Under the pieces are notes generated by a model that was not told where the DNA came from, searched no databases, and worked only from the letters and a program-made list of their open reading frames with translations. A DNA stretch of 64,000 nucleotides from positions 62,001 to 126,000 of the forward strand of contig SVRI01000003.1 of assembly GCA_015064895.1 (NCBI GenBank). Direction: 5' to 3'. The translations under genes and the position numbers were made by a program. Of this stretch, positions 29,954-64,000 are shown piece by piece. Position 1 is the first letter of the stretch, and each line of letters opens with the position of its first letter. Source of the DNA: Oscillospiraceae bacterium. Lineage in GTDB: Bacteria > Bacillota > Clostridia > Oscillospirales > CAG-382.

Positions 29954-30295
29954 CGACTGGGGTGAACAATCGCGCTGGACAGAAATGTCGGTGAGGAAAG
30001 TCCGGGCTTCACAGAGCAGGATAACGGATAACGTCCGCCGGAGGCGACTCCCGGGATAGTGCAACAGAGATATACCGCCGTATTTTACGGTAAGGGTGGA
30101 AAGGCGAGGTAAGAGCTCACCGGCGTGGTGGTGACATCACGGCCCTGTAAACCCTATCCGAAGCAACACCGAATGCAGAGAGCTTTATGCTACGTTTGCT
30201 CGACGGAATCTGTGAGGTGGCAACAGAGCTTTATGGCAACATAAAGCCAAGATAGATGATTGTTCTCGACAGAACCCGGCTTACAGCCCCAGTCG
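29954..30295 (+). ncRNA. rnpB: RNase P RNA, bacterial class A
   Basis: This is the catalytic RNA that removes 5' leaders from pre-tRNAs. Conserved landmarks are in order: GAGGAAAGTCCGGGCT (helix P4 5' part), GATAGTGCAACAGAGA, GGTAAGAGCTCACCG, ATCCGAAGC and the closing ACAGAACCCGGCTTACAG (P4 3' part). The ends pair as CGACTGGGG with CCCCAGTCG (P1), which sets the boundaries. The internal helices suit the ancestral A type rather than the B type of Bacillus. Confidence 0.95.
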
Positions 30296-30299
30296 CGGG

Positions 30300-30337
30300 T
30301 AGCACCCGCCGGCAATTTCACGGGCGGTGCTTGATTT
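30300..30337 (+). terminator. Terminator-like hairpin after rnpB
   Basis: GCACC-C-GCC pairs with GGC-GGTGC across a short loop with one bulge, followed by TTGATTTT. It is imperfect but well placed to end the RNase P RNA transcript. Confidence 0.55.
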
Positions 30338-30339
30338 TA

Positions 30340-30660
30340 ACAAACAAAAGGTGTCGCGCAACGAACATCGTTTGCGTTGCATAAATCCAACAACGCAAAC
30401 TCATCGAAACACCGACGAAAGTTCAGAAAAACATACAGATATAATGCACGATTGTCCGTTCACAACCGTCAAACACCGACGGTTGCGAACTGTAAACAAA
30501 TTAGCACTACACCCAATGTGAGGAGTTAAGCCGCCTCTTTTTGAGTGGTCGGTTTGGTTCACTTTCCTGAGTGAAAATGAACGGAAAACGCACGTCGCAA
30601 CGTGCGGAATCCTCACTACATATAACTTAGCACTATATTAAACTCAAGAAGGAAAATATA
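30340..30660 (+). repeat. Noncoding stretch packed with hairpins and a dispersed-repeat fragment
   Basis: No credible gene lies here. Four inverted repeats are visible: GTTTGCGTTG/CAACGCAAAC (30370-30400, 11-nt loop); GTTC-CAACCGTC-type arms at 30458-30490 (13 bp with one mismatch, loop AAACACC); TTCACT/AGTGAA (30558-30575); and CGCACGT/ACGTGCG (30589-30606). The first has the same loop and outer stem as hairpins at 62.3-62.5 kb. The stretch 30489-30550 (TAGCAC then GAGGAGTTAAGCCGCC) is a partial copy of the element found twice at 62.76-62.96 kb. Confidence 0.6.
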
Positions 30661-30663
30661 AAA

Positions 30664-31083
30664 ATGCGAATTTTAGGAATTGACTACGGCGACGTAAGAG
30701 TCGGTCTTGCAATCTGTGACCCCACGGAATTTTTGGCAAGCGGTATCGGCAACGTAGTTATAAAAGGCATGAACGATGCGGTTGAAAAGGTCTGCGAGAA
30801 AATAAAAGAAACCTCTGCCGAAAAAATAGTCCTCGGACTTCCCGTCAACATGAACGGAACACAAGGCGACAAGGCGGAAAAAATCAAGGTCTTTGCCGAG
30901 AAGCTGAAAGATGCCTCGGGGCTTGAAATTGACTTTATCGATGAAAGACGCACCACTATCATGGCACACGGCTTCATGAACGAAACAGGAACCCACGGCA
31001 AAAAACGCAAGGACTCGGTAGATACTCTGTCTGCACAGATAATACTTCAGACATATCTCGACATGAAAAGAGGAAACAAATGA
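30664..31083 (+). CDS. ruvX: RuvX/YqgF-family pre-16S rRNA nuclease
   Basis: YqgF/RuvX is an RNase H-fold nuclease that takes part in the final trimming of the 16S rRNA 5' end and is often annotated as a Holliday-junction resolvase. The 139-aa protein has the first catalytic motif ILGIDYGDVRVGLAI, the central glutamate segment IVLGLPVNMNG and the closing DERRTT plus DTLSAQIILQ. AAGAAGGA precedes the ATG. The stop overlaps rsmG by four bases. In many Firmicutes it follows ireB; here ireB lies 3 kb downstream. Confidence 0.92.
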   Translation: MRILGIDYGDVRVGLAICDPTEFLASGIGNVVIKGMNDAVEKVCEKIKETSAEKIVLGLPVNMNGTQGDKAEKIKVFAEKLKDASGLEIDFIDERRTTIMAHGFMNETGTHGKKRKDSVDTLSAQIILQTYLDMKRGNK

Positions 31084-62199: not shown

Positions 62200-62233
62200 C
62201 TTACTTTTTCTTTTGCAAAAAAGAAAAAGTAAG
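62200..62233 (+). repeat. Long hairpin directly after yicC
   Basis: CTTACTTTTTCTTTT pairs perfectly with AAAAGAAAAAGTAAG around GCAA. It begins at the base after the yicC stop. Its arms reappear at the joints of the tandem repeat that follows. Confidence 0.8.
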
Positions 62234-62490
62234 CAAAAAGAAAAGAAAACGGGACTACATCTCAGTTTTCACTCGATGTCAGTTCCCGAGAGACATTCCG
62301 TTTGTCCGCCACAAATCAAAGCGGACAAACTCAGGACAGTTTTTGGCAAAGAAAAAGTAAGCAAAACGAAAAGAAAACGAGACTACATCTCATTTTTCAC
62401 TCGATGTCAGTTCCCGAGAGACATTCCGTTTGTCCGCCATAAATCGAAGCGGACAAACTCAGGACAGTTTTTAGCAAAGAAAAAGTAAGA
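62222..62490 (+). repeat. Two tandem copies of a 128-bp noncoding unit
   Basis: The unit runs AAGAAAAAGTAAGCAAAA through ACTACATCTC, CACTCGATGTCAGTTCCCG and the hairpin GTTTGTCCGC/GCGGACAAAC to CAGTTTTT. Copies begin near 62222 and 62350, with a partial third at 62478. The spacing of 128 is not a multiple of three, and the ORF at 62213 reads the two copies in different frames, so the repeat is not coding. Each copy holds a 10-bp hairpin with an 11-nt loop (62300-62330, 62428-62458) like the one at 30370. Confidence 0.88.
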
Positions 62491-62577
62491 AAAAAAGAAA
62501 ACGGGACATAGTGGTCTTTACACAGGGGACGAATAAAAGTCAGTAAGTTTTGTGCTTGCTGGCTTTTTGCTATTTTT

Positions 62578-63059
62578 CTGTACTTTTGCCCCGATGCAAA
62601 AGTACCAAAAAATCTCCACTCAAAAAGAGGGGATGGCTCATTCGGGAGAAACAAAGTGCTAAAAGGCAAATTTTGACTCGGACAAATGAAACCAAATACT
62701 TCTACGAAGCCGTCAAAATTTGGATTCTACCAATTTCAATGATACTGCCGCCCTCATTCCGCTGACCTCCCCTCTTTTGCCGTGGTGGCTTAACTCCCCT
62801 CATTTATATTTGTGCTAATTTGAAGCATATTCGGTTGGTTGGATTAGAGTATACCAAACTAATCCTGATACAGTTTCGCGATAATGAATGTTTGAATCCT
62901 GTAAACAATTACCCGCGTTGAGAGAGGTAAGCCGCCGCGGCAAAGGAGAGAGGTCACGCAGACTCGCTGACATGACGGTTTTTGATGAGATTGGTGTCGA
63001 GTCATCTCTCCTTTTGAGCGGAGAATTTTTGGTTCTTTTGTTTCGGGACAAAAGAACAA
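62578..63059. repeat. Composite inverted-repeat element in the yicC-clpC gap
   Basis: Two blocks occur as inverted copies. Block A (62578-62640) holds GTACTTTTGC/GCAAAAGTAC then CCAAAAAATCTCC...CTCAAAAAGAGG; its inverted copy (62999-63059) holds GTTCTTTTGT/ACAAAAGAAC. Block B (62906-62961, GAGAGAGGTAAGCCGCC...GGAGAGAGGTCA) is inverted at 62761-62820 and partly present at 30489-30550. The order is A, B inverted, B, A inverted. No transposase is present, so this looks like non-autonomous repeats inserted head to head. Confidence 0.75.
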
Positions 63060-63084
63060 AGAACGTCACCGCAGTGAATATGTA

Positions 63085-63112
63085 TAAAGAAAGGCGTACC
63101 GCAGTACGCCTT
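63085..63112 (-). terminator. Terminator of the clpC-type gene
   Basis: AAGGCGTAC pairs with GTACGCCTT around CGCA; on the minus strand the stem is followed by TCTTTATA. It lies 31 bases after the stop codon. Confidence 0.75.
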
Positions 63113-63142
63113 CCAATTTCATTTGTCCACAAGGATTATTTG

Positions 63143-64000
63143 CTATACCTTTTTATACACTACTCTGTTTTCCTCAAGAACCGCCTCAACCTTATCGCCG
63201 CCGGAAATTTCACCCTCAAGAATTTTCAGCGAAAGACTGTCCTCAATCTGTCTTTGCATTGCACGTCTGAGGGGTCTTGCACCGTAGACGGGATCAAAGC
63301 CTTCCTTTGCAAGATGGCTTATCACCTCATCCGAGAAGGTAAGGTCAATGCCGAGATTCTTAATTCTTTCATTTATCTGCGACAGCATAAGTGTTGCAAT
63401 CTTCTTTATGTCTTCATCCGTAAGTTTTCTGAAAACGACAATTTCATCGACTCTGTTCAAAAACTCGGGTCTGAAGTGTCCTTTGAGAGCTTCAAGCACA
63501 AGCTTTTCGGTCTTTATCTGTTCCTTTTCATCATCGGTTTCGTTATTGAAGCCGAGTCTTTTTGGTTCGGTAAGCGAGCCTGTGCCGAGGTTTGAGGTCA
63601 TAATAATGACAGTATTTTTGAAGTCAACGCTTCTGCCGTGGGAATCGGTTAAGATTCCGTCATCAAGCACCTGCAAAAGAAGATTGAACACGTCGGGATG
63701 TGCCTTTTCGATTTCATCAAAAAGCACTACCGAATAAGGATTTCGGCGGATTTTTTCGGTAAGCTGTCCCGCATCCTCAAAGCCGACATATCCGGGAGGA
63801 GAACCTATAAGCTTTGACACCGAATGCTTTTCCATGTATTCCGACATATCAATTCGGACAATTGCATTTTCATCCCCGAAAACGGCTTCGGCAAGTGCCT
63901 TGGAAAGCTCTGTCTTACCGACACCCGTCTGTCCGCAGAAAATAAACGAGCCCTGAGGTCTTTTGGGGTCTTTGAGCCCCGTTCTGCCACGACGTATTGC
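63143..64000 (-). CDS. clpC: ClpC-type AAA+ protease unfoldase, C-terminal part (5' end outside window)
   Basis: This is the second AAA+ domain and the C-terminal D2-small domain of a Clp/Hsp100 unfoldase, which feeds substrates to ClpP. The track starts at an internal methionine (63847), but the frame continues to the window edge and includes the Walker [18 protein letters not shown]. Further motifs are [19 protein letters not shown] (pore loop), [16 protein letters not shown] (Walker B), [15 protein letters not shown] and the sensor-2 [15 protein letters not shown]. ClpC is more likely than ClpB, but the N-terminal and middle domains that would decide are not in the window. Confidence 0.9.

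What the first reader, a model, noticed from the sequence alone, without database searches (positions are those of the whole stretch)
62578..63059. Head-to-head noncoding repeats with a second covarying hairpin
Blocks A and B appear as inverted copies about 65 and 56 bases long. The hairpin in block A changes from GTACTTTTGC/GCAAAAGTAC to GTTCTTTTGT/ACAAAAGAAC, keeping pairing and the CCCGA loop. Block B has a third partial copy at 30489-30550. This is a diverged family of small non-autonomous elements with conserved RNA or DNA structure and no transposase in the window.
Basis: seen in the sequence. Interest (0 to 1): 0.62.

Follow-up and report, generated by a model that had tools for sequence, protein, structure and literature searches.

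The report
Mobile terminator-carrying palindromic intergenic repeat
The paired hairpin blocks are one copy of a roughly 600-base non-coding repeat that has spread to about 36 places in this gut Clostridia genome, mostly between genes that end facing each other, where it brings its own transcription stop signals and in one clear case sits inside the loop of an older stop-signal hairpin.

Summary
Blocks A and B are parts of a ~145-nt (or ~227-nt) hairpin unit; a covariance model finds 107 in this 2.28 Mb genome. The window copy is a composite: two units head-to-head (62578-62804 minus, 62916-63059 plus), flanked by two terminator-like hairpins (62536-62568, 63093-63110) and weak outer inverted repeats. 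In the 0.81 Mb examined there are 36 such dimers, all in the same arrangement, enriched between convergent genes (21/33 against 47/295; p=1.4e-8). A congener carries single units but no dimers in the 0.67 Mb examined, so the composite amplified in this lineage. Orthologous sites without it exist; at one the element sits in the loop of the ancestral terminator hairpin, arms preserved. The terminal hairpin has about 25 variants with 1087 of 1089 outer pairs Watson-Crick, pointing to palindrome upkeep at the DNA level. No RAYT-type transposase is in the genome; no Rfam match; the exact core motif is found only in this genus. Best reading: a MITE/REPIN/BOX-like non-autonomous mobile repeat, a new variant that carries terminators. 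Insertion into terminator loops is shown once, supported at two more loci, and not general. The mobilising enzyme is unknown.

The parts
62510..62534 (+). Outer end, A side (AGTGGTCTTTACACAGGGGACGAAT), weak terminal inverted repeat; family consensus AAGGGGTCTTCATATAGGGAATAAATT
   Evidence: Outer ends of dimers compared by eye; degenerate in the window copy
62536..62568 (+). Terminator-like hairpin A (AAAGTCAGTAAG..CTTGCTGGCTTTTT) facing the left gene
   Evidence: 24 of 32 such sites in fetched own DNA lie within 500 bp of a dimer; conserved left of copies
62578..62804 (-). Left unit (long form, ~227 nt, with variable inner stem-loop)
   Evidence: Covariance-model match C26:124578-124804, 94.2 bits
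62580..62605 (-). Terminal hairpin of the left unit, GTACTTTTGC-CCCGAT-GCAAAAGTAC as read on the plus strand
   Evidence: haplotype with 22 copies
62805..62915 (.). Spacer between the two units; shared by dimers, about 110-127 nt in most copies
62916..63059 (+). Right unit (~144 nt)
   Evidence: Covariance-model match C26:124916-125059, 168.4 bits
63032..63057 (+). Terminal hairpin of the right unit GTTCTTTTGT-TTCGGG-ACAAAAGAAC
63065..63077 (+). Remnant of a third hairpin with loop CCGCAG (GTCACCGCAGTGA)
   Evidence: Recurs with different stems in other copies
63093..63110 (-). Terminator-like hairpin I (GGCGTACCGCAGTACGCC) facing the minus-strand gene ending at 63143 (ClpC-like by reading)
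   Evidence: 20 of 26 such sites lie within 500 bp of a dimer; all 17 I hairpins measured face the neighbouring gene
63113..63140 (-). Outer end, I side, weak terminal inverted repeat (family consensus AAGGGGTGTTTCCTTAGGGATGAATAC)
   Evidence: degenerate in the window copy
30515..30584 (+). Internally deleted single unit upstream of a gene starting at 30664
   Evidence: 22.1 bits, E=1.8e-6 in 301 bases, filters off

Best explanation
The region is one copy of a lineage-specific, non-autonomous mobile palindromic element. Shown: it is repeated, its copies occupy sites that are empty in congeners, and its parts recur together. A single hairpin unit is the older form, shared with congeners. In this lineage two units were joined head-to-head and enclosed by two terminator-like hairpins, and that composite multiplied to at least 36 copies. 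Inferred: it moves as DNA with help in trans from an unidentified enzyme, and goes to intrinsic terminators at gene ends, where it inserts into or near the hairpin loop. Because it brings its own terminators facing both neighbouring genes, replacing the old terminator costs the host little, which would explain its enrichment between convergent genes. The near-perfect terminal hairpin is probably kept palindromic by a DNA process (recognition as a hairpin, or template-switch repair between arms).
For: 107 units genome-wide. 36 of 36 dimers are minus-plus; 21/33 in convergent gaps against 47/295 background, p=1.4e-8; only 1 divergent. A and I hairpins are almost confined to the element and face the neighbouring gene (22/24 and 17/17), usually about 30-60 nt from the gene end. 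Empty site at C7:57861: congener G003 has AAAAGGAACTGC-TTTTATT-GCAGTTCCTT after the orthologous gene; here AAAAGGAACTG and CAGTTCCTTTTT flank the element. Empty site at C10:22989: both congeners have only a ~27-bp terminator between the convergent genes, and part of its left arm remains. C22:25382 also has no counterpart in G003, 697 bp against 3 bp. No dimers or I hairpins in 0.67 Mb of G003. Covariation: 24 of 34 pairs with changes on both sides, 0 of 500 shuffles, slid controls 4-7. Terminal hairpin 1087/1089 outer pairs Watson-Crick, other helices 295 G-T and 62 A-C cells.
Against: No mobilising enzyme identified; only the Y1 transposase family was tested in the genome. No target-site duplication at the clean empty site. 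Complementary host arms around the element are visible at only 3 of 14 testable dimers, and the overall test against mismatched loci is weak (p=0.03 to 0.37 depending on how much of the end is excluded). Flanking intergenic DNA is diverged, so exact boundaries are uncertain. Copies could partly have been exchanged by homologous recombination. Gene calls are my own simple ones, and the genome is a draft.
Confidence: 0.72

Rival explanations
1. The units are structured RNAs: cis-acting leaders or attenuators of the downstream gene, with conservation and covariation reflecting RNA function.
For: Strong covariation; helices 1-4 have far more G-U than A-C cells, favouring one strand; single units in tandem gaps lie in the direction of transcription, 17 against 3, p=0.0026, often about 60 nt before a start codon.
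Against: The downstream genes I read have no common function; no Rfam family; dimers sit mainly between gene ends, not before genes; the terminal stem lacks wobble pairs; many copies vary between congeners.
Confidence: 0.13
2. The copies spread mainly by homologous recombination or gene conversion between intergenic repeats, with transposition only in the distant past.
For: Modules (terminal hairpins, inner stem-loops, third hairpins) are exchanged between copies; several sites carry different units in the two species.
Against: Sites with little or no homology to seed recombination gained the whole composite (C7:57861, C10:22989, C22:25382).
Confidence: 0.1
3. The element is a host function amplified by selection: a bidirectional terminator cassette that the host gains from, not a selfish element.
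For: Constant placement after gene ends and paired terminators; convergent enrichment.
Against: Congeners use short ordinary terminators at the same sites; the ~490-bp interior is not needed for termination; single units show other placements.
Confidence: 0.05

Closest known systems
REPIN / BIME (paired REP sequences, RAYT-mobilised)
   Same: Extragenic, high copy, two palindromic units in inverted orientation acting as the replicating entity, compensatory changes in the hairpin (PMC3116915)
   Different: Units are 145-227 nt instead of short REPs (20-40 bp, PMC3733652); composite carries terminators; no Y1/RAYT transposase in this genome
BOX, RUP and SPRITE repeats of Streptococcus pneumoniae
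   Same: Modular or hairpin-forming small interspersed repeats, 30-125 copies, enriched between convergent genes, non-autonomous (PMC3049150)
   Different: Different host group and architecture: not boxA-B-C modules but a fixed head-to-head pair with flanking terminators. Not compared by sequence here
Insertion sequences that target REP palindromes (IS1397, ISKpn1, IS621)
   Same: Insertion into palindromic sites at gene ends (PMC1525189)
   Different: Those are autonomous IS elements; this one encodes no recognised protein and its clear target is a terminator hairpin, not a REP
MITEs
   Same: Small, non-coding, inverted-repeat ends, strong secondary structure
   Different: No target-site duplication seen, no parent IS found; internal long inverted repeats rather than simple ends

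Membership tests
REP/REPIN with RAYT | Pairs of palindromic units in inverted orientation, extragenic, high copy | tested here: met
   36 dimers, all minus-plus, none inside called genes
REP/REPIN with RAYT | Cognate Y1/HUH tyrosine transposase (PF01797) | tested here: not met
   None in own genome, G001 or G002; the single G003 hit reads as an ordinary IS200-type element with other ends
REP/REPIN with RAYT | Short REP unit of 20-40 nt | tested here: not met
   Unit is about 145-227 nt
REP/REPIN with RAYT | GTAG or CGTC tag at one end of the palindrome | not tested
   Not scanned formally
MITE | Inverted terminal repeats | tested here: met
   82% inverted repeat of 61 nt between units; weak outer ends
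MITE | Target-site duplication | tested here: not met
   None at C7:57861 against G003; other sites too diverged
MITE | Parent autonomous transposon with the same ends | tested here: inconclusive
   None seen in fetched loci; only PF01797 searched genome-wide
MITE | Insertion polymorphism (empty sites in relatives) | tested here: met
   C7:57861, C10:22989, C22:25382
BOX-type element | boxA, boxB, boxC modules by sequence | not tested
   No streptococcal sequence compared
Known structured RNA (Rfam) | Match to a curated family | tested here: not met
   No match at gathering score; best chance hits far below threshold

The most novel reading that the evidence does not exclude
A non-RAYT mobile element that uses the hairpin loop of intrinsic terminators as its target, replaces the host terminator with its own pair, and keeps its end hairpin perfect through a DNA-level hairpin intermediate, so that each insertion is transcriptionally silent and the new nested palindrome is itself a hairpin.
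Probability: 0.25. Interest if true: 0.72.

Novelty: new variant of a known kind. Interest (0 to 1): 0.5.

Why it matters
It offers a natural series (single unit in congeners, head-to-head composite amplified in one lineage, orthologous sites without it) for asking how small bacterial repeats without a RAYT spread. Carrying terminators would explain how such repeats avoid harming neighbouring genes. The terminal hairpin, with about 25 variants and almost no wobble pairs, is a caution against reading covariation as proof of RNA function.

Tried and rejected
Known RNA families: nothing. RAYT/Y1 transposase: absent. The G003 Y1 hit: read as an IS200-type element with different ends. Window locus as empty-site test: the upstream gene is not syntenic, so uninformative. 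Phage or cassette origin of the repeat-rich contig C22: ordinary chromosomal genes by reading, and no exact motif in viral contigs. A possible group I intron end next to one copy (from reading) had no Rfam support. A general test for terminator arms around dimers was weak. Some sites without a unit in G003 (e.g. C8:26151, C14:7406) gave no clean junction. Two syntenic searches for C4:5095 and C30:21908 gave no joined empty site.

Full report
WHAT IS THERE. The window lies at C26:62001-126000 of a 2.28 Mb draft genome in 40 contigs. The 261-base left half gives 44 matches and the 336-base right half 64 matches in the genome, so chance is excluded.

THE UNIT. Aligning copies gives a hairpin unit of about 145 nt: a 5' motif (TAAGCCNCCNCGGC), a long stem (AAGGAGAGAGG..CTCTCCTT) with a variable inner part, GAGCGGAG, TTTTTG and a terminal hairpin. 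A longer form of about 227 nt has an extra inner stem-loop. A covariance model from 23 units finds 107 in the genome and, in congeners, at least 33 in G003, 42 in G002 and 3 in G001, with only weak matches in one of the 33 other family members searched. An exact core pattern is found only in two congeneric MAGs among ~85,000 species genomes (the window's own genome may be left out there) and in no viral contig. The partial copy at 30515-30584 is an internally deleted unit.

THE COMPOSITE. In 0.81 Mb of own DNA the units form 36 dimers and 35 single units, some of the latter cut by contig ends. All 36 dimers are minus-plus. The copies share the whole interior, and most carry hairpin A on one side and many hairpin I on the other. 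A has 24 of 32 and I 20 of 26 occurrences within 500 bp of a dimer. A faces the neighbouring gene in 22 of 24 and I in 17 of 17, usually 30-60 nt from the gene end. A ends in a T run on the side away from the gene it faces, as an intrinsic terminator would; I does likewise on the minus strand. Termination itself is inferred. Outside them lie weakly similar inverted ends (AAGGGGTCTTCATATAGGGAATAAATT and AAGGGGTGTTTCCTTAGGGATGAATAC), degenerate in the window copy. The whole 551-nt core folds as one long imperfect hairpin, z = -8.5 on one strand and -8.4 on the other.

PLACEMENT. Dimers lie in convergent gaps in 21 of 33 cases, background 47 of 295, p=1.4e-8; in divergent gaps once. Single units in tandem gaps follow the direction of transcription, 17 against 3, p=0.0026. 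Gene calls are from a simple codon-score script of mine.

EMPTY SITES. Of the own sites with syntenic G003 DNA, some units are shared (for example before a deoB-like gene) and some are absent. In the G003 DNA examined (0.67 Mb) there are units but no head-to-head dimers, two unit-linked A hairpins and no I. At C10:22989 both congeners have only a ~27-bp terminator (AAAAATCCCC..GGGGATTTTT in G003) between the convergent genes; here AAAATCCC remains, followed by the composite. At C7:57861 G003 has AAAAGGAACTGC-TTTTATT-GCAGTTCCTT directly after the orthologous gene; here AAAAGGAACTG is followed by the element and then CAGTTCCTTTTT. This places the element inside the old terminator loop. Matching arms also flank C10:3751 (AAAAGAGCACCGA, 13 of 13) and C23:159987 (9 of 10), but not the other 11 dimers tested, and the pooled test is weak (p=0.03 to 0.37). 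No target duplication is visible.

STRUCTURE AND LEVEL OF SELECTION. On 122 units, 95.9% of cells pair, 24 of 34 pairs show changes on both sides, none of 500 shuffles reach this, and slid controls give 4-7; the alignment was fitted to the structure, so these counts lean towards it. The terminal hairpin has about 25 haplotypes; in its nine outer pairs 1087 of 1089 cells are Watson-Crick, one is G-T. The other helices hold 295 G-T and 62 A-C cells in 2428. An RNA stem would be expected to show wobble intermediates, so the terminal hairpin looks like a palindrome kept at DNA level, by hairpin recognition or by template switching, which has been proposed to restore perfect stems (PMC8794818). The G-T excess in the other helices and the orientation of single units leave room for an RNA role there.

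COMPARISON. It works most like REPINs (paired inverted units as the replicating entity, PMC3116915) and BOX/RUP/SPRITE repeats (enriched between convergent genes, PMC3049150). It fails the REPIN test on the transposase and on unit size. Insertion into palindromes at gene ends is known for IS1397, ISKpn1 and IS621 in REPs (PMC1525189). I did not find a described small repeat that carries a terminator pair, but the literature search was limited to six queries of an open-access library.

VERDICT. A real, genus-restricted, mobile-looking repeat family; new variant of a known kind. Mobility and composite structure are well supported; terminator-loop targeting is shown once and otherwise suggestive; the helper enzyme is unknown.

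Noticed in passing
window 62220-62507: Two full copies and a partial third of a 128-bp direct repeat with a GTTTGTCCGC..GCGGACAAAC hairpin; related units occur at other places in the genome.
   Followed up: partly
L065 7590-7780 and other dimer flanks: Tandem modules of about 100 bp (GTCGGG..CCCGAC, ACACGGGG, GTGGTCGCATAAACAAC, terminal hairpin) next to dimers; intergenic regions are mosaics of several hairpin families.
   Followed up: partly
copies in several loci, e.g. L062 2067-2090, L134 about 735: A third hairpin with invariant loop CCGCAG and varying stems (TCGACT-CCGCAG-AGTCGA, TCGCTT-CCGCAG-AAGCGA); hairpin I has the same loop.
   Followed up: no
A4 alignment, terminal hairpin: Some haplotypes carry CCGA instead of TCGG in the loop, as loop inversion by template switching would give; not tested.
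   Followed up: no
window 29960-30330: Looks like RNase P RNA directly upstream of the deleted unit at 30515-30584 and a RuvX-like gene at 30664 (by reading only).
   Followed up: no
L131 (G010) and L130 (G042): Weak matches with a similar T-run plus CTTTTN..NAAAAG hairpin in other genera; a wider motif family may exist.
   Followed up: no
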